This document shows, piece after piece, positions 16,703 to 64,000 of a DNA stretch of 64,000 nt. The notes below the pieces were generated by a model. That model was not told where the DNA came from. It did not search any database and saw nothing but the letters and a program-made list of their open reading frames with translations. Source of the stretch: Parelaphostrongylus tenuis (taxonomy: Eukaryota > Nematoda > Chromadorea > Rhabditida > Metastrongylidae); the NCBI GenBank assembly GCA_019055375.1, contig JAHQIW010000791.1, forward strand, positions 35,335 through 99,334. Reading direction: 5' to 3'. Position numbers and translations under genes: made by a program. Position 1 is the first letter of the stretch, and every line of letters begins with the position of its first letter.

Positions 16703-16742
16703 ATTTTGAGCTTTTCATAAGATCTGTTACGGCTTTTATAAA

Positions 16743-16786
16743 GTACTAGACACTTGTTTCGGCCTTCCAGGCTTATCAGTAGAGTA
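16743..16786 (-). ncRNA. Hammerhead ribozyme motif, B1 left arm (decayed)
   Basis: On the minus strand: CTGATAA (consensus CTGANGA, one change), a 12-nt stem II segment ending GGCC, GAAA, an imperfect stem III CAAGTGT, then cleavage position C and TAGTAC. Probably inactive. Confidence 0.55.
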
Positions 16787-17161
16787 GCATGGTGCCTTCG
16801 CTTAGTCAGTTCCTCGGGAACATATCCCGAATGTAGAGGAATCGAGGACGAACATTCTACACTCGACATTTGGTTAAGGGATCACCGTGGCATTCTTTCA
16901 GAGTGGTTGATTGTCGATTGCATGAGATACGGCTGTTACGTGGCCATAACGAACATCAATATAGATTATACTGTTTCAAGCGAGGTTTCAAAATATTCGC
17001 TTGAAAGATTTGTTGCATATGGCCACGTAACAGCCGTACGCCATGCAATCGACAGTGAATCACTCTAAAAGAACGCCACGGTGACCCATTCACTGCATGC
17101 CGAGTGCAAAAAGATTCTCTAATCAGGAAATATGTTCCCGATGAATTGAGTGAACGAAACT

Positions 17162-17206
17162 ACTCTAGTGATGAGGCTGGAAGGCCGTTTCGAGTGTCTA
17201 GTACTC
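17162..17206 (+). ncRNA. Hammerhead ribozyme motif, B1 right arm (decayed)
   Basis: TGATGA box, paired stem II (GGCT-GGAA-GGCC), but GTTT replaces GAAA and stem III is altered. CTAG/TAGT remains of stem I. Probably inactive. Confidence 0.5.
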
Positions 17207-17295
17207 TGTAAGTACCGTAACAAACCTCACAAACCTCACGAAAGGCTCAAAATAAGTTATTAGAACTAAGAGAATTGAGTGGTGAACAAAAACAC

Positions 17296-17368
17296 GGCCT
17301 CAGGCGGGAATCGAACCCACGTTTCATCCTATCCGGGGACGTGTGCTCTACCACTACACCACTGAGGC
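17296..17368 (-). tRNA. tRNA-like module, left arm (pseudo or SINE-type)
   Basis: Folds as a cloverleaf: acceptor GCCTCAG/CTGAGGC (7 bp), D stem GTGT/GCAC, anticodon stem CGTCC/GGATG, T stem GTGGG/CCCGC with a TTCGATT loop. A box and B box (GGTTCGATTCC) are good. The anticodon loop CCGGATA has C where U33 is invariant. The nominal anticodon GGA (Ser) clashes with the short variable arm, so I treat it as a tRNA-derived module, not a working tRNA. Confidence 0.6.
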
Positions 17369-17643
17369 ACATTTGCCCGACCACTCATTTCTTCAACATC
17401 TCAATGTTAGCTATCAGCCACCAACCTTTGACAGGTTTGGTCGGGTATGCGATTTCGCTTTATAAACCCAGTTGAGCTGATAGCTATTCTAATTACTAAT
17501 TAGCTATCAGCTATAGTAATTAGAATAGCTATCAGCTCAACTGGGTTTATAAAGCGAAATCGCATACCCGACCAAACCTGTCAAAGGTTGGTGGCTGATA
17601 GCTAACATTGAGATGTTGAAGAAATGAGTGGTCGGGCAAATGT

Positions 17644-17716
17644 GCCTCAGTGGTGTAGTGGTAGAGCACACGTCCCCGGATAGGATGAAACGTGGGTTCG
17701 ATTCCCGCCTGAGGCC
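17644..17716 (+). tRNA. tRNA-like module, right arm (pseudo or SINE-type)
   Basis: Identical mirror copy of the left-arm module, on the plus strand and facing right. It has an internal pol III A box (TGGTGTAGTGG) and B box. Same non-standard position 33. Confidence 0.6.
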
Positions 17717-17751
17717 GTGTTTTTGTTCACCACTCAATTCTCTTAGTTCTA

Positions 17752-32865: not shown

Positions 32866-33796
32866 TGAATATGCATTGATGATGTGCTATACGGCACTTT
32901 AAAATAGCATAAAATTGCATCTCAATGAAGAACTACACTGCGGGCTGTCTGCGTCAGCAGATTCTATGGAACTTTAACAGAGGATATTCATTGTGTGAAT
33001 ACAAAACTTTAGAAGATGTCGATTTCAAAAGTGTTTACAATTACTGAAGCGTTAGCTCGCCGTTATACGAAAGGGGCGAGTTGTTTTTTCAAGACACTCA
33101 ACAATGATCGAGATGATTGGTAATGAGTCGTCAAGAATGAATGTAAATTCTACAGAAGAAGTAAATCGTCAATGGCATTTTTCTAAAAATACGATACGGC
33201 ACTTCATAAGATCGCAAAAATTCTTTCGTTAGAAGGTCCAAACTCTCTACAGGAAAAGTGTGAAATGTGGCATAAAGAGTTTACTCGAATGGAGACTGCT
33301 TTTTGTATGAACACGATTTATACGATGATTATTAGTCAGGTGTCCACTTGTTCTCGATTTCTATTTACCGTGATTTCGTTCGTTAAGTAAAAGAACGAGT
33401 TGTTCATTCTACATATTGGGTAGATTTTTTAGATGTTGCGTATGAGTCGTTAAGAAAGAAGGCAAACTACGAAAGTGACTGTGTTAGATAACTCTAAAAC
33501 ATGTAACTCATTTTTTGTCAAGCAAGGTCAAGGTTGTATCATAATAGGTTAGCTAACGCTTTCGCAATGTCGTTGGCGCCAGAGCCAGGAACAAAATATA
33601 AGAATTGGTAAGCGATTCACCCAATATTTCAATCGTACGACATAAACGTCAGACTTGCAGTTTTGTTCTCACAACTAAACTAAAACAGTTCTGCGGCATT
33701 TGTTAATCAAAAAACTCGGTTCTTTTCCTATAGACCGCACGGGAAGAAGAAACGATCTTTCTCGCTGTACAAGAACTTTTATAAGAGTACCTTAAT
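32866..33796. other. Non-coding stretch
   Basis: No exon, RNA gene or repeat recognised. Confidence 0.5.
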
Positions 33797-33893
33797 TTTG
33801 AGTGCTTCGTTTAGACCACGCTCAAATTTCAATAGATCCTTTCATTGCTATTTGAGCCAACTTGTCATGTGGTCTGGTAAGGGCTCTTGTACA

Positions 33894-33936
33894 GCCCGAT
33901 ACACGTGTTTCGTCTTTACAGACTCGTCAGCTGGGC
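33894..33936 (-). ncRNA. Hammerhead ribozyme, A1 left arm, core intact
   Basis: Minus strand: GCCCAG, CTGACGA, stem II GTCT-GTAA-AGAC (4 bp, GNRA-type loop), GAAA, self-complementary ACACGTGT with A at the cleavage position, then TCGGGC. All conserved catalytic bases are present. Stem I has one weak pair and one mismatch next to the core. Confidence 0.8.
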
Positions 33937-34091
33937 AGAACCCGTCGCCTTTCGATCTTTTCATAGTCAGTTGTTGGGTGAAGGTTTCACTTGACATGGA
34001 GTGTAAAGCGTTCGTCTTCGATGACTCTCTATAAGGAGTGTGAGGCTCCCGATAGAACTGACTATGAAAAGATCGAAAGACGACGGGTTCT

Positions 34092-34134
34092 GCCCTGCTG
34101 TCGAGTCTGTAAGGACGAAACACGTGTATCGAGC
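34092..34134 (+). ncRNA. Hammerhead ribozyme, A1 right arm (core mutated)
   Basis: Same layout as the left arm, but the box reads CTGTCGA instead of CTGANGA. Stem II is GTCT-GTAA-GGAC, GAAA and ACACGTGT-A are kept, and stem I is GCCCTG/TCGAGC. Confidence 0.7.
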
Positions 34135-34260
34135 TGTACAAGAGCCCTTAACCAGACCACATGACAAGTTGGCTCAAATAATAATGAAAGGATCTATTGA
34201 CATTTCATTAGAGTATTGCAATCATTCGAAAGCTCAAATCTCTGGCTAGTGCCGTAAGTG

Positions 34261-36404: not shown

Positions 36405-36560
36405 TTCATAGGGGAGGGGGGAAGGATTGGATAAAGACGAGAGGCCTGCCCGACTGACGAGGCTGCAAGGCCAAAACACGAGTATCGTGCTGTACAAGAA
36501 CCCACTAACAGACCACATGACATGCTGGCTCAAATAATAATTATGAGATATACTGAGTGC
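36405..36560 (+). mobile_element. Family A element, solo right arm (A2)
   Basis: Only the right-arm half of the foldback is present: a degraded inner part, the hammerhead at 36448-36490, then the outer block TGTACAAGAAC...CAGACCACATGACATG and GGCTCAAATAATAATT. No mirrored left arm lies within reach. Confidence 0.7.
36448..36490 (+). ncRNA. Hammerhead ribozyme, A2 (nearly intact)
   Basis: GCCCGA, CTGACGA, stem II GGCT-GCAA-GGCC, AAAA in place of GAAA, stem III ACACGAGT with one mismatch, A, then TCGTGC. Two changes likely abolish cleavage. Confidence 0.7.
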
Positions 36561-36774
36561 CTAGTGATGCAGTCTACCAGTAAGGAAGATGCTCGTCCAA
36601 CTCTCCTTCAACTCTCTTTTTTAGTCATGTGGGAGCATCTTAATTCGGCCACCATAAACAGTGCAAGGAGATTTGACTCATCAGTATTCTACGACATTCT
36701 TATAGAAGTCAAAACCTTAAGCAGAAGAAGCAACAAGTGAGATATTCAAAGACCTTTGTGGAGGCTTAGTGCGA

Positions 36775-38078: not shown

Positions 38079-38616
38079 AACGCTGAGCGATATTGTCAGC
38101 AACTGGACCATTGCAATGAAGTAATTCCTCGCCGCCGCCGTCGCCATGTCATGTTGCTTCAGGACAATGAAAGCTCCACGTTGCCAAGAAAACAAGGAAG
38201 AAGTTGACCGATTTGGGCTGGGAGCACTTGGATCATCCACTGCATTTGCCAGATCTGTATCCGTCCAATTTTCATCTCTTCAGATCATTGGAGCAGTGGT
38301 TGGACAAGAAAAAGCGTTTCGAGACATCAATCATTTGTGTCGAGAATTGACTGGTTGGTTTGCAGCGAAGAATAATGAGTTTTATGAGCGCGGAATTGAT
38401 TTGTTGCCGGAGCGTTGGCAGAATTGCATCCAGACGAATCCAGGCAGACGGAGAATACTTTTAATGTTATTTGATACTTTTATTACTTGGAAAAATAAAA
38501 ATTTGGATTTTTGGATCAAGCTCGGAAACTTAGTTGGAGATCTAAGTTTTCTCTCGGAGGTGTATCAATCTATTCAGTATCTGTCAGCAATCACTCAGCA
38601 TGAGCAGGATTGATCT
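38079..38616 (+). pseudogene. mariner transposase fragment, frameshifted
   Basis: The C-terminal half of a mariner (DD34D) transposase. It reads NAERYCQQLDHCNEV, then MLLQDNES with the second catalytic Asp at 38163-38165. After a one-base deletion it continues HVAKKTRKKLTDLGWEHLDH and LPDLYPSNFHLF in another frame, then shifts again into FAAKNNEFYERGIDLLPERW. The third catalytic Asp (family PSDYHLF) is Asn here. The N-terminal DNA-binding half, the first Asp and terminal repeats were not found. It is a dead copy. Confidence 0.85.
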
Positions 38617-39905: not shown

Positions 39906-40584
39906 CAACTTTAATACCAGTCTACTGACATTATGAAACTGGAAGCGTCCATAAGCGCGGAACACGAAATAGAATTAGCGATTACGTGTGCTATAGGGCA
40001 ACTTTTTGTAAGCTTCTGATTACAAAAAGGGAGCATACTGACTTGTTGTGGTGAGACCGAGGAAAGGCCAATTTTCAAGAATCCTAAAAGTATTGGAGTT
40101 TCTTTTGGATTCTTAGGACGTAACCTGGAAAAGAACTTGTAAGCTGCCAACCAAATCTGAAGGGCGGAAAAACTCCGCTTTGAAAAAAGGCGGGCTCTAA
40201 TGCCGATTTGGAACTGCTAAAAGGTATGCATATGGTGATGAATAGGCAGTGCGAGAAAGCTGAGTGCTCCGCCCGATCTTTTTTCTATGAATGTCAGTTG
40301 TAGGAAGACCGCTAAACAAATCTCACTGATTAATGTCGCGTTGCAGGAAGCACCATGTAAGAATTAGTGGATGGCAAAACGTCAGGATCCAAAAGTATTC
40401 CCATACGGGGAATGCCGTCGTAAATGGCAGAGTAGAGTGGGCGATGTTCCTGGCATAAATGATAATGGAATGTCTAGTTTTGAAAGAGTTCGACGAGGAA
40501 ATGAACGGTCAAAAGACCAAAGAGTACCTTCACAATCGATTGTTTCATAGACCTCGCTGGAAACAATATATATCCTGATATCTT
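39906..40584. other. Non-coding stretch
   Basis: Nothing recognised. Confidence 0.45.
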
Positions 40585-40620
40585 GAGCTTATTAATGAGG
40601 TTTGTTATGACATTTATACA

Positions 40621-40664
40621 ACGCTAGACACGTATTTGGGGTTTGCAGCCTCATTAGTAGCACA
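40621..40664 (-). ncRNA. Hammerhead ribozyme, B2 left arm (decayed)
   Basis: Minus strand: GTGCTA, CTAATGA, GGCTGCAAACCC, CAAA, TACGTGT, C, TAGCGT. Stem I (GCTA/TAGC) is kept, but both core boxes carry changes. Confidence 0.55.
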
Positions 40665-41083
40665 ATGCCTAGTATTAAATGGGTATCACAACAGACATCG
40701 TGATAGGCTAAACATATTTTATTAGATTAATCCCTATGATCGACTGTTTTTAAAACCTCGTGTTAAACATTCAAAATAATTCCAAAAAAGAGAGGAGGCC
40801 GAAACCACCGAAACACCGGTGTATGGCCCTGGCATACCAACCTCGTTTAGGCTTGAAACATTCTCTTTTTTATCAGATTATATATAGTTTTGAGTGAGGT
40901 CTACAAAAACAGTCGAATGTAAAGTTATGACTCATTTCACGAGCCAAAAGAGGCCGACTGTAAATCAATGCAATGTCAGGGGGTTTTATCACCTGACATG
41001 AGGTGATTTTGTAAACGATTCGGCGTCGATTTCTTCATATGTATGGGGTATATCACCTGCAAGGGATTAGTTGAACCGAAAAG

Positions 41084-41127
41084 CATGCAACTGATGAGGC
41101 TGCAAAGCCGAAACACGTGTCTAGCAC
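41084..41127 (+). ncRNA. Hammerhead ribozyme, B2 right arm, core intact
   Basis: CTGATGA, stem II GGCT-GCAA-AGCC (4 bp, GNRA loop), GAAA, self-complementary ACACGTGT, cleavage position C, then TAGCAC. The upstream stem I strand (TGCAA) pairs at four of five positions. Confidence 0.8.
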
Positions 41128-41814
41128 GAATAATAGTGTCATACTAGAACTCATGAAAGGCTCAAGATATGTTATCAGACTACAGTCTTATGAGATTTAA
41201 AACCCCACTGAGTCCCAAATTAAAGTATTCGGATGCATTGGAAATAATTTGGCTTGCAAATTTCTACAGAAGACTGGGTTAGAAAGTAACAGAGAGGATC
41301 TTTCTCGAATATCAAAGTTGAAGCAAGTGTACTGTGCCATGATGCTCAAAGTCAACAACTTTACTGCGGCTGGAAAAGAATGCTTTCCAAGAGCTAACTC
41401 TTGCGAAGCGATAGGATGTAGCATCATCATCCTCGGATTAGCGCAGATATCTTCGTCGATATGTCTTTCAACAGCAAAAATGCCGAACCACGTGGAAAGA
41501 ATCGTACCAATGCTTTGCCTATTGCTTTGCCTCCTGATACACTACACCGCTAACCACTGCTATTCCGCCCCTATCCTTGTATGTGACATTTAATAAGCCG
41601 AAACGTAACAATAAATACTAACGAATCTATATCTAGGAATAAAATCAACTTAATTAAGAAAGTTGGTCTATTTTTAAGCATATAAAATGCGACGAAATTT
41701 TCGTTTCAGTTTTAGCATTGCGCTACCGACAGTTTTTCGCCATGTGAGTGCTCTGGGCGTGTGCACCGCCGTATTAGAGTTGCCTTGTATTGTAATGTCT
41801 ACATGTGGTCTTAA

Positions 41815-43234: not shown

Positions 43235-44450
43235 ATCAATTCTTCAGCATCCAAAGTCAGACTACATCAGTCATCAGTTACTCTAGCGGGCCGACGAAGA
43301 GAATAACAAACTTTCTGAGCCTCAAATTATTGGAGTTGTTAGCGTTTATACCAGTTCATCTCCCTACCACCGTAATTTCGTCAGTCATTCTTATATCACT
43401 CTAAACAAACGTCTCGAATGACGCTGCAATACAAGCGATCCTCTGACTGCTGTTAGAAAATGTAGAAAAAATGAAGTTGTGGCTTGCCGATTCAACAACT
43501 TATGACTCTTTTGAAGTAACTATTGAGTTGTTCGATCCAAGTGGTCATGAAGATAATGCAACACGAGGTTGGCATTAGGGCAACGATTAGCACAAAGCCT
43601 TGCTATTGCCTCCATGTTTGAAGTGAAAGCCCCAGATCTTAGTCGTCGCCCATTAATCTACCGTCGATACATAGATGGTGGCTTTGTCTTCCGTTCCACA
43701 CAAAAAAGATGGGCAAATATATGAATTGTTGAATGAAAAGTCCATCAAATATTTTGAGTTTACACAAGAAAACCTCACGGAGAACTGGCTTCCATTCTTA
43801 ACCTTTCCTTTCATTCTTAACCCGCAAAAAAATCACTTGTTGCTTACTTCACAGCAAATAACCATCTTAAATGGCACTAAAAGAACAGCCACCGCGATCA
43901 GGTTAAAAGGGAGAGAAAGGCTCCATGACGAGAACAGTAGTTTGTCAAACCTGAATGGTGAGATACCTTCAGAACTGCTCCTCATAATAAACGGAATATG
44001 TGTCTCTACTAAAAGGCGCCTAAAAAACAGTGGTTTGGGAAACTAGGAATGTAGAAATTCCACTCAGCACATTACGTCGCCAGTTGGTTCGGATCTGTCC
44101 ACATGATTATTGGTGTAAAACAGAGTTTTGTGTGATACGTTTTAATGGTAGAGATGGAGAGCGCACGAAGACAAGTGCATTGTACATGGCCTTCTATAAA
44201 AAAAAGTGTTGATGGACGCACAGGAGAAACTGTGGACCACTTTGGGCACGAATAATTAACCTCTAGTTAAAAAGTCGAGAAGTCGTACAGGTGCTCCTCT
44301 ATACACAATCGAGACAGAGAGACATAATGGTTACGACCCTGAGGTGTTACTGAACATCCTGGGACACGAGTCATATACCTGGATGTGGCAAATCTTTGAA
44401 GCGTTAGAATTAATTTCAAGAGTCCAGGAATGAATACCAAATACAGTGTC
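43235..44450 (+). pseudogene. Penelope-like retroelement: reverse transcriptase and GIY-YIG endonuclease, decayed
   Basis: Frame-shifting stretches read in order like the Penelope-like family: SSGPTKRITNFLSLKLLELL with AFIPVHLPTT, then TNVSNDAAIQAI, RRPLIYRRYIDGGFV (the YIDD catalytic box with the second Asp changed to Gly; first Asp at 43674-43676), ELLNEKSIKYFEFTQENLTE with NWLPFL, and RTATAIRLKGRERL. Downstream the zinc-finger-like linker and GIY-YIG endonuclease follow as CKTEFCVI...ALYMAFYKKKC, then GRTGETVDHFG, GYDPEVLLNILGHES and IFEALEL. Several stops and shifts make it dead. Terminal repeats are not identified. The family assignment is by recognised motif order. Confidence 0.8.
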
Positions 44451-48400: not shown

Positions 48401-49984
48401 AGAATGGTCGAGTCAAGACGTTCCACCGCGATCGTCAATGTGCATCACTAGCCACTCGCTCACTCTTCCTTCCTCTTCCTTCAAGTTGAGTTATCACTCA
48501 TCTGATTCCCTTTTCCACTATTTATTAGAGATTTCATCTGCTGTTTTTATAAAACCTCTCATAGACTTCAAAAATCAATCCTTAGTGTTCTGATTAGTTG
48601 ACGCTATTAGCAGGTAATGGCCAATGAAATTCCATTTATAATCCCTTCATGAGATACATATGGTCATCAGTATGGTTTAATGTGGTTTATGGTTATATGT
48701 TGCACGTGGTTGTGATACTGTCGACGGCGCAAATCACTGGTGGAAATGTAACCGCTCCGTTGGGGCAGCAGTCCATCATGAAGATTTTTTCCTAATACTG
48801 TGTAATACCACATGTTCACCAAACACTTAGGTTAACTCTCCAGTGTCATCAAGAAAATGGAATTTAATGCAAGAAGAGCAAGAAACGAAAGGATAGCTTG
48901 AGTAAAGCTCGCAAATGGCAGTGTAAAGTAGTGAAACGTAATAGCGAACAATGGTAAACAACAAACCATGAGCTAAAACGTCGAGTTAGCGTGAATAGAG
49001 GTTTGCATTGATGCAAAAAAAGCAATTAAAAAAAGCAATTGCATGGAGAGTTAGTGCTTGAGAATTCTTGTTGAAGTGTATCGCTCTTGGTTTCATTTCG
49101 ATGACACTCGTAACATTTGAAGAGATCATCATCATATGTACTTATGACTACCGTATCTTTGAATAAAAAGTCGCTCAAGACAACGCGGATTGGGAAATCA
49201 TCAACGATTTGTAAGAATGGCGTACTTTAGAGATAATGGACAAATCAGGTAAGATACTTAACATCCACGTGATAGGTCGGTACTGTTTATAGTACAACGT
49301 GTTACGCAACAATGGTAGGTGTCAGAAAAGTGTACAAGGATTAGTAAGTTTATAGCATGATGAATGAGGAAAGGACACTCTCTATAGAACAGGGAAGGGC
49401 ATTAGATAATTCATTAAGATCTTCCACTCGTAAGTATTCAAGCGAAGAAGAGCTAAGGAATCCGAGATTCATCTTTCCTTCTCATATACCCTCAGTTTCC
49501 TCCGCCTTCTTTTGTCTATCCGTCGTCCTCGCTCCGTTTCTACCTACCTCTCTCGCTCATTACAAACACTTAGGTGCACAAAAATATTTTCCAGGAGAAA
49601 CTGTGTTAGTTGAGCAGCAAGCTGGAGAATCATAGAACTATAAGAAACATCTCGTGCAAAGGATCCAAAATATACGTCGCTAACTACTTCTCTATTTTTG
49701 TACTTTAGATAGATAAGTTGGCACTATTTCTATGGACTTTCATCTAACGAAAAATTTGTTGAAGTTTTTGAAATAAGGAATGATAATCTAAATCTAAGTG
49801 GATTTGATGACAACTCGAGGCGAGTGGAGAAATGGCAACAGCGAGTGGGGAAGTGGCGCTATCAAAGATGGACGGCATCTGAACTCTGTTGACCACAACA
49901 CCAGTAATGTTCATAGAACTGTCAACATTACCGGTAAACTGATAATGGCATAACATGTTTTGAGCCTTTTTTGAGGTCTGGTTG
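48401..49984. other. Non-coding stretch
   Basis: A 92-codon plus-strand frame at 49357-49635 has no motif or splice context. No gene is supported. Confidence 0.4.
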
Positions 49985-50300
49985 GGCACTTCAGTCTTAG
50001 ACGGGCCCGTCTCGCCCTTGCACGCTCATCAGTAGCACAGTGTCTTTCGGTTCAGCCGATACCTTGCAAGTGATATACCCCTACTTATAAAGGAATCGAA
50101 GATGAATAACAATTTACCGCAAGTCAGGTGATAAATTCCCCAACATTGAACTAGCAAAAGGCGAGGTCGTAGCTGGTAAAATGAATCATACCTCTTCAAT
50201 CAACTGTTTTGGAAGACCTCGCTCAAAAACAGCAGTAATCTGATTACCGGTAGTAACCGGCAGTGAAACTCACTACATCCTGAAACACGTCCCATAAACT
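49985..50300. mobile_element. Family B element, partial copy B4
   Basis: Left half of the element: a hammerhead at 49994-50038 (minus), then TTTCGGTTCAGCCGATACC, AAGTGATATACCCC, CAGGTGATAAATTCCCC and AAGACCTCGCTCAAAA. These match in order the reverse complement of the B2 interior (41080 down to 40890). A mirrored right hammerhead was not found. Confidence 0.6.
49994..50038 (-). ncRNA. Hammerhead ribozyme, B4, with a different stem III
   Basis: Minus strand: GTGCTA, CTGATGA, GCGT-GCAA-GGGC (poorly paired), GAGA in place of GAAA, then a ten-base self-complementary stem III ACGGGCCCGT, cleavage position C, TAAGAC. Confidence 0.55.
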
Positions 50301-51524
50301 AAACATCTAGAGAGCGATCGAGATGTTTTAGGACAACTGGAAAATTCAACTATCTGAACAACACATTTCTTGAGATTTTCGTAACAATAGTTCAGACGGA
50401 TCACGATGAAAGATCGAGCGTTGATCCGGTTCGGTTCGTCACTTGTAGATAACTTGAGATGAATTTAGTGGAAAAACATCTCACTAGAGCAATTTTCGAA
50501 CGTGATAAACAAATTCGCTGGAAAAGGATGTTTAGTACGGCTTTAAGAGATCATCCTTAACGTGAACAATTATAAGGTATCAAAAAGCTCTACAAAAACT
50601 TTCTTTTCGATAAGGTTAACTGAAGTGTTCGGTTCTTCTTTATTTCACTAATGCCTTCTCAACTCAGTCATCCCATCTATCATTGTTTTGTGTGATGGAT
50701 TGCAGACTCATTGTACTCTAGCTTCGTTTACCGATCGTTCACCGAAAAAATATCTAAGACAACTGACTGCTTTACAAAACTCAATTCGTCTATGATATGC
50801 AATATAGCAGTTGCTCGACCGAATAAGTGCTATTTTTCTTACCACCTAAGCTCTTGACTATCAATATATCTATTAAGAATATCCACGATTGTTATTCTAT
50901 GCGCAAAGAGTCATACCAGCTGGCTTCTGTTTCCCACACCACGGGCCGTGTGTTCGCGCAACATAAAGGCTCGTGCCGCCTTTCAACTGGCAACCAAAAA
51001 GTGTTTCCCATAAAATTTGAATATTGTGCTTGACAATTACTCACAGGCTAGCGGAAACAAAATCTTCGGAATAAGTCACTCCCACAACACTTCCATTCGC
51101 TACAGACCGCTACTTGGAGCTGAATTCCACCTCTCTTGGCTCTAGATCATCCTGTTCGTAGCTTACTGTAGTTCATATTGTTGTATATTACCTCTGTGAA
51201 GTCTTTGATACATACATTGTGCATCTCCCCTCATCCACCTAAAAATCTGGGATTCGGGCATCTTACACTTAGGCTCATATCTGTTGGATCATCATGTACC
51301 GTTAACACTGCGTTACCTGTCGTGATTGTTGCCTCTTCAAATGCATTTATATCATCATTGTTCTTTATTATAAGTCGTTCGTTACGGCGATGAATATTAT
51401 TCGTTGGTCTCAGGATCAACACAATACGTCATCAAATAAATAATGAAATGGTTGGAATAATCAATAGACTTGAGTGACCAAACACTAATCAGTGCAGTCT
51501 CCAATAAAGCTAGAACATTATACC
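50301..51524. other. Non-coding stretch
   Basis: Frames at 50827-51033 and 51178-51422 lack homology. Nothing recognised. Confidence 0.45.
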
Positions 51525-51627
51525 ATTCGTTTCGCGTGCTTTCTCAAGACCACGCTCAAATTTCAATATATGTGTTGATTATTACTTAAGCCAACATGTC
51601 ATGTTGCCTGTTATAGGTTCTTACACA

Positions 51628-51671
51628 GACCTATACACGTGTTTCGGCCTTGGCAGCCTCGTCAGTCGGGC
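51628..51671 (-). ncRNA. Hammerhead ribozyme, A3 left arm, core intact
   Basis: Minus strand: GCCCGA, CTGACGA, GGCTGCCAAGGCC (stem II with a five-base loop), GAAA, ACACGTGT, A, TAGGTC. The catalytic boxes are intact; stem I on the 3' side is weakened by two mismatches. Confidence 0.75.
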
Positions 51672-51910
51672 AGAACCCGTCGTCTTTAGCCAATCTTCTT
51701 GAGGTGTTGAAACTTCAACATGGTCTTGAGAAAACTCTCCAAACAATGGTGTGATATCTCTAAGACACCAGCCAAGAGCATTTGAGTGTACAACACTGCC
51801 GATCTAGTGATTCATTTCATTTGATAGCACGTGTAAATCGTTCGCCGTCGCCCACTCTAAGTAGGAGGACTGGAGCACCTCGAGAAGATTGGGCTAAACA
51901 ATAAGTACCC

Positions 51911-51954
51911 GCCCGAGTGACAAGGTTGCCAAGGCCGAAACACATGTATCGGGC
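51911..51954 (+). ncRNA. Hammerhead ribozyme, A3 right arm (core mutated)
   Basis: GCCCGA/TCGGGC stem I is perfect and GAAA is kept, but the box is GTGACAA and stem III reads ACACATGT, no longer self-complementary at its centre. Confidence 0.65.
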
Positions 51955-52084
51955 TGTATAAGAGCCCATAACAAGCCACATGACATGTTGGCTCAAATAA
52001 TACTTATCAGAGCTAAAACAGTCCAAAGCGCTCTCCACTAAACAGCCAATACATGCAACTAATATTTACCGTAATCTTCACATA

Positions 52085-54670: not shown

Positions 54671-54820
54671 ATGGGATCCCATCTCTTGCATACCAGTTAG
54701 TATTCGTAAATGTTTGTTTCGAATGTTTTCTTAAGACCACAGCTCAAATTTCAATATGCCTAGCAATCATTTTTGAGCCACGCATGTCTTTGGTCTGTCA
54801 AAGGAGGGCTGACTTATAGA

Positions 54821-54863
54821 GCCCGATACACGTGTTTCGATCTTGCGATCTCGTCAGTCGGGC
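54821..54863 (-). ncRNA. Hammerhead ribozyme, A4 left arm, fully intact
   Basis: Minus strand: stem I GCCCGA with TCGGGC (6 of 6 paired), CTGACGA, stem II GATC-GCAA-GATC (4 bp, GNRA tetraloop), GAAA, self-complementary ACACGTGT, cleavage position A. All conserved bases of a type-I hammerhead are present. With only a two-base-pair stem III and its four-base loop, the monomer would be weak. A dimer would form an eight-base-pair stem III. Confidence 0.88.
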
Positions 54864-55225
54864 AGTTACCCTTTCTCGTCTTTTGCCAATCCTGTGTGGG
54901 TGCTCCAGTCCCCAAAGCAAGAGTCAGCGACGACGAACGTTTCACACTCTATGTCCAGTGAAAATCTCACCAAACATAGAGTGTTGTACACTCGATTGCT
55001 CGTGGCTAGTATGTTCAATATATCATAACTCTCGTTTCGAGTGTTTTTTCAAGACCACAGCTCAAATTTCAATATGCCGAGGAATCATTTTTGAGCCACT
55101 CACAACACACTGTGTTTGGTGTGATTTTCACTGGACATAGAGTGTAAAACGTCCGTCGTCGCTAACTCTTAGTGTGGGGACTGGAGCGCCCACACAGGAT
55201 TGGCAAAAGACGAGAAAGGGTAACT

Positions 55226-55268
55226 GCCCGACTGAAGAGATCGTAAGATCAAAACACGTGTATCGGGC
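55226..55268 (+). ncRNA. Hammerhead ribozyme, A4 right arm (GAAA box mutated)
   Basis: Stem I GCCCGA/TCGGGC perfect, CTGAAGA fits CUGANGA, stem II GATC-GTAA-GATC, stem III ACACGTGT-A. The GAAA box reads AAAA, losing the conserved G12. Confidence 0.8.
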
Positions 55269-55384
55269 TCTATAAGTCAGCCCTCCTTTGACAGACCACT
55301 GACATGCGTGGCTCAAAAATGATTGCTAGGCATATTCGTAAATGTGTCAAGTGCCTTGTGAGATAGTAAGAGGAGTTTGTATCT

Positions 55385-62128: not shown

Positions 62129-62195
62129 TCTATATATATATATATGTATATTATATATTTATACATATATATAAATTATATATCCTCTTTGAGGG
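62129..62195. repeat. TA-rich tract between SINE and RTE
   Basis: Interrupted TA repeat. It could be the 3' tail of the SINE or the 5' target of the retrotransposon. Confidence 0.75.
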
Positions 62196-64000
62196 ATCCC
62201 GCCCGGTTAGTCGCGAGGGCACGTGGCGCGTCCCCAGGTGGTGGATAGGGGAATAAAACGCGAACCAAAAGCGACCGTGTGCTTCCCAGAGACGCAGGTG
62301 GATTCAGGGGACGAGCTCCCTGCTTCTGCAGCGCCGACTTGACAAAACTCTATTTCTACGAGTCAAGTCGGCCAAAAGCCTGCAATCAAGCGGCTGGGAA
62401 GTACATGGGAGGCGGTTAGGAGTCGCCTCCAACAAATAAGCTCCTCCCGCTCCTCCGAGAGAGACTGGCAAGCTACTCGTGAGTACCCAGCCCCCACGTT
62501 TAGAGCCTGGCAAGCTACACGTTGGGTATCAAAATGCCAAAAACAGTAACAAATATGGGCCTCATTCCCCTGACCCCGAAAGAGCCCCTGGTACGGCAGC
62601 GCCAGGTAGGACGAGTACGGAGAGGCTGCTAAAATCTCAGGGCCGAACTAGGCTGCCAAGATCGAAACGGACTAAAATGACGATCTGTACCTACAACGCA
62701 AGAACCCTTGCTCACAATCCGCTGTAGAAGATCTATTGATTCAAGCAAGAAGAATAAGGTACGACGTCATTGGCCTGGCTGAGACGAGAAGGCGCCATCC
62801 TTTTCACGCTGTCTATGACACCGGAGAAGAACTGTTCCTTGGAACATGCGATCGCAGAGGTGTCGGTGGCGTTGGCGTCCTCGTCAAATCGAATTTGACC
62901 GTGAGCATTGATTCGTTCGAACAACTAACAACCCGTATCGGACGATTACGGTTGAAACGATGTGGTTCTATGCCGGCTTTGACCATCTTCGTTGCTTACG
63001 CACCAACATCAAGCTATGACGAAGACGAAGTCGAAGCGTTCTATATGGACCTCGAAAAATTCTTCAGAGAAGATCATACATTCTTCAAGGTCATTGTCGG
63101 AGATTTTAACGCAAAAATTGGACCTAGAAGAACGTCTGAAGAACGTCACATAGGGACCCACGGACTAGAATGGAATGAACAGGGTGAGAGGCTATCCGAG
63201 TTTATCATGACGACCCAAACCATCCATGGTAACTCGCAATTCCAAAAGCCTCTTCTCAGCGATGGACGTGGGAGTCTCCCAATGGAGAGTACCATAACGA
63301 AATAGATCACATCATAGTAAATCGAAGGTTTTGCCTGACCGACGTCGCTGTTGTTCCTAAGTTCTACACGGGATCAGACCATCGCCTCCTTCGCGCAACG
63401 TTCCGATTTTCGAGGAGAGGAGAGAAAGCCGCTAAATTCAAACAACGAAGTCCCAGAACTACCATAAACTGGGATGTATTCAAATCATTAGTCGGCTCTT
63501 GGGAAGATACCGTTGTCGACAACATCGACGAAGAATACGATCGACTCGTTGAATATCTTCACGTTAGCGCTATAAAAGCCGAGAGTCCTAAGGTCACGAA
63601 GAGACGCTTGTCTCCGCAGACACTCGAGCTGATACGTCAACGTGGAATCGCACGAGCTGCAGGCAACCGAAACCTTACGTCCGAACTTGCGAAACGATGC
63701 AGAGAAGCGATAAAAGAAGACCTCAAAGAGAGAAGAGCAGCAGTTATGGCAGAAGCTGCAGAAGCTGGGAAGAGCATTCGCAAAGCCCAGCGAGGCTTCG
63801 CCAACTATAAGACCAAGATGATTGCACTCCGATACCCTGACGGGACACTTACAGCTTCGAGAAGGGCTATGGAGAAAATCATCCACCAATACTACTCGGA
63901 TCTCTTCGCTAGCCATGTCCTCTTACCGTCATATAAATTGAAAGAGGACGAATATGTCGTTCCACCGTCCTTCCTTCCGAAATCCGACAGCTATATCGTC
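62196..64000 (+). pseudogene. RTE-class LINE retrotransposon, 5' region and endonuclease, frameshifted, cut by window edge
   Basis: An untranslated leader (GTGGCGCGTCCCCAGGTGG near its start) leads to a frame ending KMTICTYNARTL from 62677, the start of the AP-like endonuclease. A one-base shift near 62722 moves it to the frame reading [32 protein letters not shown] and [12 protein letters not shown] second shift near 63260 gives RWTWESPNGEYHNEIDHIIV, FYTGSDHRLL and the linker through MEKIIHQYYSDLF. The catalytic Asn, Glu, Asp/Asn (GDFN) and SDH motifs are all present. The reverse transcriptase would lie beyond 64000. The sequence is close to the element family I know from hookworms. Confidence 0.9.

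What the first reader, a model, noticed from the sequence alone, without database searches (positions are those of the whole stretch)
54705..55335. Palindromic element A4 carries a complete type-I hammerhead ribozyme facing outward in each arm
Seen directly: in 43 bases (54821-54863, minus) the stem I strands GCCCGA/UCGGGC, CUGACGA, a 4-bp stem II with a GCAA loop, GAAA, and a self-complementary ACACGUGU before the cleavage base A. The mirrored arm has the same module with one lost core base. Hammerheads are known from Penelope-like elements and retrozymes. A palindrome with one outward hammerhead per arm does not match a described element I know.
Basis: partly seen in the sequence, partly recalled or inferred. 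Interest (0 to 1): 0.92.

Follow-up and report, generated by a model that had tools for sequence, protein, structure and literature searches.

The report
Ribozyme repeats inserted head to head
This palindrome in a roundworm genome belongs to a family with about 12,000 hammerhead-ribozyme motifs there, and because its insertion scars match those of Penelope-type jumping genes in the same genome it was likely copied in by their enzyme, probably from both sides of one cut.

Summary
The palindrome is real. The minus-strand type I hammerhead (54821-54863) is supported (27.7 bits, E 1.9e-4, below Rfam's cut-off); the mirrored one has lost a core base. A4 is no oddity: the source genome (481.5 Mb; a strongylid nematode by protein similarity) has 11,882 matches to a strict pattern of this hammerhead, none to the reversed pattern. 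Units are about 317 bases, as in animal retrozymes; at one spacing, copies lie head to head 244 times, tail to tail 14. Of 49 sampled two-armed insertions 21 keep exact target duplications of 8-16 bases (1.9 expected). The two ends differ: in the 15 best cases one stops 60-73 bases, the other 104-133, past the ribozyme cut. Seven of eight Penelope-like elements (PLEs) fetched from the same genome show the same layout, duplications of mostly 12 bases and the same two-end rule (56-66 and 101-106). Best reading: a retrozyme mobilised in trans by PLE enzyme, each strand of a staggered cut priming its own cDNA. The 2020 retrozyme paper (passages read) only proposes PLEs. Catalysis, circular RNA and trans-mobilisation are untested.

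The parts
54701..54713 (.). left target-site duplication TATTCGTAAATGT
   Evidence: exact 13-base direct repeat with 55333-55345
54714..55102 (-). left arm: one 318-base unit plus a partial second unit, reading outward (leftward)
   Evidence: direct repeat spacing 318; arm profile hits
54714..54752 (-). 'tail' segment, present on the left end only
   Evidence: arm match ends at 54753 opposite 55336, four bases into the right duplication; ends 113 nt (left) and 70 nt (right) past the ribozyme cut
54714..54826 (-). T region, 3' of the predicted ribozyme cut; region where reverse transcription is inferred to start; hairpin GCTCAAAT/ATTTGAGC
   Evidence: ends mapped by target duplication; hairpin 87% paired in the family, shuffled 86%, slid 16-48%
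54821..54863 (-). type I hammerhead, intact core; predicted cut after A at 54827
   Evidence: Rfam RF00163 27.7 bits; covariation of stems I and II across the family
54800..54872 (-). hammerhead with extended stem I and internal loop
   Evidence: predicted fold
55034..55102 (-). second copy of T region (start of a further unit)
   Evidence: 91% identical to 54716-54784
55103..55332 (+). right arm, reading outward (rightward), no tail
   Evidence: inverted repeat I1; profile hit
55226..55268 (+). right-arm hammerhead with core G to A at 55251; predicted cut point after 55262; likely inactive
   Evidence: sequence; cut point; no Rfam hammerhead hit
55333..55345 (.). right target-site duplication
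51518..52010 (.). related palindrome; duplication AGCTAGAACA/AGCTAAAACA (9 of 10, not the top-scoring repeat); ends 116 and 62 nt past the cut
33790..34202 (.). related palindrome; duplication-like 11 of 13 (not the top-scoring repeat); ends 110 and 74 nt past the cut
36415..36565 (+). related single arm
40550..41170 (.). diverged relatives; intact hammerhead core at 41091 (+)
16709..17282 (.). diverged palindromic relative
49961..50081 (-). diverged relative (weak, E 1.6e-4)
43270..44254 (+). remnant of a Penelope-like ORF
   Evidence: tblastn of the 893-aa ORF of L081, E 2.8e-9 and 4e-5

Best explanation
A4 is an insertion of a short repeat (318-base unit) with a type I hammerhead, like an animal retrozyme, and it was likely made by the enzyme of Penelope-like elements (PLEs), predicted to reverse-transcribe the repeat's RNA from both strands of a staggered cut so that two cDNAs lie head to head. 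Shown: arms, hammerhead sequence, duplication, unit repeats, two different end points, and the same scars on PLEs of this genome. Inferred: transcripts carry the unit in multimeric or circular form. PLE protein binds the region 3' of the ribozyme and makes two nicks about 12 bases apart. One 3' end primes RT about 104-123 nt past the ribozyme cut (tail end), the other about 60-73 nt past it (no-tail end). Each cDNA stops at a variable point and the two are joined; filling the stagger gives the duplication. Because the full arms read unbroken through the ribozyme cut point, the template was uncut or re-ligated RNA; the hammerhead would serve to cut multimers into units for circles. Once inserted, a palindromic copy would make RNA that folds into one long duplex.
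For: (1) Orientation, whole genome, same gap of 292-322: outward pairs 244, inward 14, tandem 608; a few matches are ambiguous, since GAAACACGTGTTTC fits both strands. (2) Exact duplications of 8 or more bases in 21 of 49 two-armed elements against 1.87 expected from mispaired flanks; 10 or more in 14 of 49 against 0.17. (3) One tailed and one untailed end in 40 of 48 classed elements (both tailed 5, neither 3; 1 more unclassed), Fisher p 3e-6. (4) 17 of 47 elements have a duplication score of 10 or more (1.92 expected); 15 of them have one end 60-73 nt and the other 104-133 nt past the cut (14 of 15 within 104-123; single values can be off by about 10 where the match runs on into the element); in the other two (L005, L028) the matched stretch is internal. 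(5) 7 of 8 PLE insertions fetched: duplications of 12-13 bases (one imperfect, 14 of 16), ends 56-66 and 101-106 nt past their own hammerhead cut; the L081 ORF has RVT_1 and GIY-YIG. (6) 2 of 18 joined-flank queries found a paralogous empty site with one copy of the target in the DNA held: L069 against L076 (86%, gapless) and L070 against window 62185-62398 (71%). (7) L082: six hammerhead units outward each way in a 3.8-kb palindrome, 99.6% self-complementary. (8) A purified PLE protein cleaves and extends both target strands and starts RT at two internal sites that define the tail (Frangieh 2024, parts 1 and 2 of 4 read).
Against: No RNA or protein was tested. 28 of 76 loci with a scoring arm lack a non-overlapping outward partner within 700 bases, 17 of them single arms, so two-armed insertion is common, not obligatory. 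Similarity between T regions of retrozyme consensus and PLE is only suggestive (0, 1, 3 and 11 of 500 shuffles reach it) and not seen for A4's own T (33 to 223 of 500). PLE hammerheads here differ (no stem III). In the Anolis PLE, ribozyme mutants did not change insertion in vitro, the ribozyme needed protein to cut, and no RNA ends at the cut were seen, so the role given to the hammerhead is weakly based. The two arms of L082 are about equally long, which snap-back copying would also give. No empty site for A4 itself; 16 of 18 queries gave none. L003, L004 and L008 share flanks: one insertion copied with its host repeat. L041 and L044 look alike by eye, so the assembly may hold duplicate contigs and genome counts may be inflated.
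Confidence: 0.66

Rival explanations
1. PLE machinery, but the palindrome forms by self-priming (snap-back) of one cDNA or of an antisense template rather than by two priming events, as proposed for rotifer Penelope elements.
For: Arkhipova 2013 (passages) infers self-priming on an antisense template from palindromes at junctions; L082 arms are almost equal in length and 99.6% complementary.
Against: A snapped-back copy should repeat the tail and run into the flank; instead 40 of 48 elements have unlike ends and the second end stops at a fixed second zone next to the duplication in 15 of 15 retained cases and 7 of 8 PLEs. Arms of A4 and of L081 are unequal.
Confidence: 0.2
2. A LINE (for instance the RTE-type element of this genome) moves the repeat and twin priming gives the inversion.
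For: RTE-type ORFs are present; twin priming gives inverted 5' parts with duplications (recalled).
Against: In twin priming the second start varies with microhomology (recalled); here it is fixed. Scars match PLEs quantitatively. I did not map LINE insertions in this genome.
Confidence: 0.08
3. A foldback or MITE-type DNA transposon whose inverted repeats happen to hold hammerheads.
For: Long inverted arms, short duplications.
Against: The two termini differ by about 40-50 bases in 40 of 48 elements, arms are tandem multimers in some copies, single-arm copies exist.
Confidence: 0.03
4. The palindromes are assembly or library artefacts.
For: Missed-adapter reads can produce false palindromes (recalled).
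Against: Artefacts would invert the flanks too and would not make target duplications or empty-site pairs; arms of A4 differ by 6%.
Confidence: 0.02

Closest known systems
Metazoan non-LTR retrozymes (Cervera and de la Pena 2020, PMC7229834; passages read)
   Same: Type I hammerhead with stem III and (predicted) a stem I internal loop; unit near 300 bases; tandem multimers; thousands of motifs; PLEs in the same genome.
   Different: Described as tandem repeats. Here most sampled insertions are head to head with one tailed and one untailed end. Circular RNA not tested here. The word nematode does not occur in that paper's main text.
Endonuclease-bearing Penelope elements with inverted pLTRs (Arkhipova 2013, PMC3846280; passages read)
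   Same: Head-to-head inverted terminal repeats, duplications of 8-10 bases, inverted copy 37 bp shorter, optional 31-bp tail on one of the inverted repeats.
   Different: A4 has no RT-endonuclease ORF; its unit is 318 bases and its hammerhead has stem III.
Poseidon PLE of Anolis, PAc (Frangieh 2024, PMC11167929; parts 1 and 2 of 4 read)
   Same: RT starts at two internal sites past the hammerhead, giving the tail; both target strands cut and extended.
   Different: Autonomous; no trans-mobilised RNA and no head-to-head product in the parts read.
Minimal PLE hammerheads (Cervera 2014; Lunse 2017; recalled and cited, texts not held)
   Same: Type I, in PLE terminal repeats; L081 carries such a motif near both outer ends.
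   Different: A4's has the ACACGUGU stem III and a predicted extended stem I.

Membership tests
Metazoan non-LTR retrozyme | type I hammerhead with stem III | tested here: met
   RF00163 27.7 bits, below the gathering score of 34; stem II 93% and stem I 88% paired across arms, shuffles at most 80% and 83%, slid at most 65% and 47%
Metazoan non-LTR retrozyme | canonical form: extended stem I with loop contacting loop II | tested here: inconclusive
   extension predicted for A4; its covariation barely exceeds shuffles (77.2% against at most 76.4%); loop contact not testable
Metazoan non-LTR retrozyme | unit about 170-400 nt in tandem | tested here: met
   318 in A4, 608 tandem pairs genome-wide, tandem units in L082
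Metazoan non-LTR retrozyme | target duplications longer than 4 bp | tested here: met
   13 bp in A4; 21 of 49 with 8 or more
Metazoan non-LTR retrozyme | abundant circular RNA | not testable with these tools
   no RNA data
Metazoan non-LTR retrozyme | self-cleavage | not testable with these tools
   bench only
Penelope-like element (autonomous) | ORF with RT and GIY-YIG endonuclease | tested here: not met
   A4 is 619 bases with no ORF of that size; such ORFs sit elsewhere in the genome
Penelope-like element (autonomous) | head-to-head arms, tail on one, short duplication | tested here: met
   same in 7 of 8 PLEs
LINE twin-primed insertion | second priming point variable (recalled) | tested here: not met
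   second end at 60-73 nt in 15 of 15 retained cases, 2 of 17 set aside
Foldback/MITE DNA transposon | matching termini at both ends | tested here: not met
   40 of 48 have unlike ends

The most novel reading that the evidence does not exclude
Animal retrozymes are parasites of Penelope-like elements. PLE enzyme carries out two-ended target-primed reverse transcription, one cDNA from each strand of a staggered cut and each from its own fixed start site, and this writes ribozyme repeats into the genome as head-to-head palindromes up to a dozen units long. It would also explain the head-to-head structure of Penelope elements themselves.
Probability: 0.6. Interest if true: 0.86.

Novelty: new variant of a known kind. 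Interest (0 to 1): 0.74.

Why it matters
The 2020 description of animal retrozymes left the mobilising enzyme open and named PLEs as a strong candidate (passage). Here insertion scars of a retrozyme-like repeat and of PLEs in one genome agree in four respects: duplication length, head-to-head layout, one tailed and one untailed end, and distances from the ribozyme cut. That makes the question testable with a purified-protein assay that already exists for another PLE. It also offers a simple origin for the inverted structure of Penelope insertions, and a family with about 12,000 ribozyme motifs to study in a nematode.

Tried and rejected
Scans for the hammerhead pattern in viral and prokaryote contigs: 0 matches each; uninformative, since the host is an animal. 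MIR869 and MIR6146 hits over A4 are below gathering scores and are what a long inverted repeat can give; rejected. Folding of single motifs: A4's left motif folds better than shuffles (z -2.5), two other window copies do not (z 0.5 and 0.7); thermodynamic folding was therefore not used as evidence and covariation was. Sequence kinship of T regions between retrozyme and PLE: suggestive only. Ribozyme cut point as the 5' end of the cDNA: rejected by eye, inner ends of partial T copies do not gather there. Shared unit order in the two arms of L082 rests on a one-base indel and is not used. Covariation in the lower part of stem I and in the T hairpin is weak against shuffles. A first pair-count script lacked the consensus line and its counts are void; redone. 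Empty site of A4: none in the genome. In one search the join for L028 and L048 fell inside the element, so those two queries say nothing.

Full report
1. The observation. The mirrored motif has lost the first core G of GAAA, so only one of the two is expected to cut. The element proper is 54714-55332; an exact 13-base duplication flanks it. The left end runs 113 nt and the right end 70 nt past the ribozyme cut; four bases next to the right end fit both arm and duplication. The left half contains a second partial unit, so the repeat unit is 318 bases.

2. A family. Six further places in the window hold relatives. The window comes from a 481.5-Mb genome that holds 5950 + 5932 matches to CTGANGA-N(8-20)-GAAACACGTGT and none to the reversed pattern. 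Protein similarity of an RTE-type ORF (120 best of 1020 hits listed, 64-92% identity over the aligned parts, nearly all Angiostrongylus, Necator, Haemonchus, Ancylostoma and kin where named; one listed hit is a shrew record) places it among strongylid nematodes. I took loci around most of the roughly 100 places that one search lists first (80 loci), left out C8:213, C23:109 and the seven places on C33, and dropped six loci (L002, L007, L010, L013, L018, L020) because they overlap others; L010's own match was thereby lost. The sample is by contig number and by an intact core on at least one arm, not random. Seven window stretches were added, 81 sequences in all; 76 hold an arm of 40 bits or more.

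3. The ribozyme is under constraint. Across 183 aligned arm hits (distinct rows only), stem II pairs in 92.6% of cells against 75.5% in shuffles (at most 79.5%), with A-U, U-A and G-C all common at one pair; stem I 87.8% against 80.3% (at most 82.5%). Sliding one strand lowers these to at most 65% and 47%. Stems were not part of the pattern used to find loci, but arms of one element are related, so the counts are not independent.

4. Orientation. In the sample, neighbouring arm hits within 700 bases are outward 58, same direction 28, inward 3. Genome-wide at one spacing: outward 244, inward 14, tandem 608. 48 of 76 loci have a non-overlapping outward pair; four more have overlapping outward hits; 17 have a single arm.

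5. Ends. In 49 two-armed elements exact duplications of 8 or more bases occur in 21 (1.87 expected from mispaired flanks). Arm ends, classed by the last profile position matched, fall into two classes about 40-50 bases apart, and 40 of 48 elements have one of each (Fisher p 3e-6). Measured from the predicted ribozyme cut in the 15 best cases, ends lie at 60-73 and 104-133 nt (14 of 15 within 104-123). The three palindromes of the window that keep both arms fit: A4 113 and 70; 51518-52010, 116 and 62; 33790-34202, 110 and 74; for the last two the duplication is imperfect, is not the top-scoring repeat and was picked because it fits. 2 of 18 joined-flank queries found paralogous empty sites that carry the target once; only the loci held and the window were searched.

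6. PLEs in the same genome. GIY-YIG gives 1723 first-look candidates, 150 scored and listed, over the cut-off. Counted by hand in that list, neighbours within 5 kb are outward 20, same direction 2, inward 0. Eight of the 20 outward pairs were fetched. Seven have a duplication (12, 12, 13, 12, 12 and 12 exact; one of 16 with two mismatches) and ends at 56-66 and 101-106 nt past their own hammerhead cut, one of each per insertion; the eighth (L088) has one arm broken by a retrozyme copy. The ORF of L081 carries RVT_1 and GIY-YIG.

7. Mechanism. The retrozyme and the PLE thus share layout, duplication length and both end distances. A purified PLE protein is reported to cut and extend both strands and to start RT at two internal sites that explain the tail. 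Two-ended priming on retrozyme RNA is the simplest account. The same paper found that ribozyme mutants did not change insertion in vitro, so the hammerhead may matter for making unit RNAs or circles rather than for insertion (inference). L082, with six hammerhead units on each side, a 3.8-kb palindrome 99.6% self-complementary, one tailed end and, read by eye from the printed flanks, a duplication of at least 13 bases, shows that templates can be multimers or circles copied many times round. As RNA, the A4 palindrome is predicted to fold into one long duplex (-443 kcal/mol, mean of 20 shuffles -165), so a palindromic copy is probably a poor source of active ribozyme and might feed silencing (inference).

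8. What stays open: catalysis, circles, expression, and direct proof of trans-mobilisation; whether two-ended priming or self-priming makes the second arm; and which PLE family is the partner.

Noticed in passing
window 17261-17751: Perfect palindrome (238-nt arms, 100% complementary, 15-nt spacer), each arm with a 73-nt tRNA-like sequence called tRNA-Ser(GGA); it begins inside the T region of the neighbouring retrozyme arm (16709-17282).
   Followed up: partly
L088:471-862: A retrozyme copy sits inside the region of a PLE arm where PLE reverse transcription would start.
   Followed up: partly
L003, L004, L008: Three loci share flanks on both sides of the retrozyme: one insertion multiplied with a larger host repeat.
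   Followed up: no
L082:577-4445: Twelve-unit head-to-head array with nearly identical units, presumably a very recent insertion.
   Followed up: partly
window 62676-64000: RTE-type endonuclease/reverse transcriptase ORFs, 64-92% identical over the aligned parts to the listed, mostly strongylid proteins; used only to place the host.
   Followed up: no
window 38125-38613: ORF that by eye resembles the C-terminal part of a mariner-type transposase; not tested.
   Followed up: no
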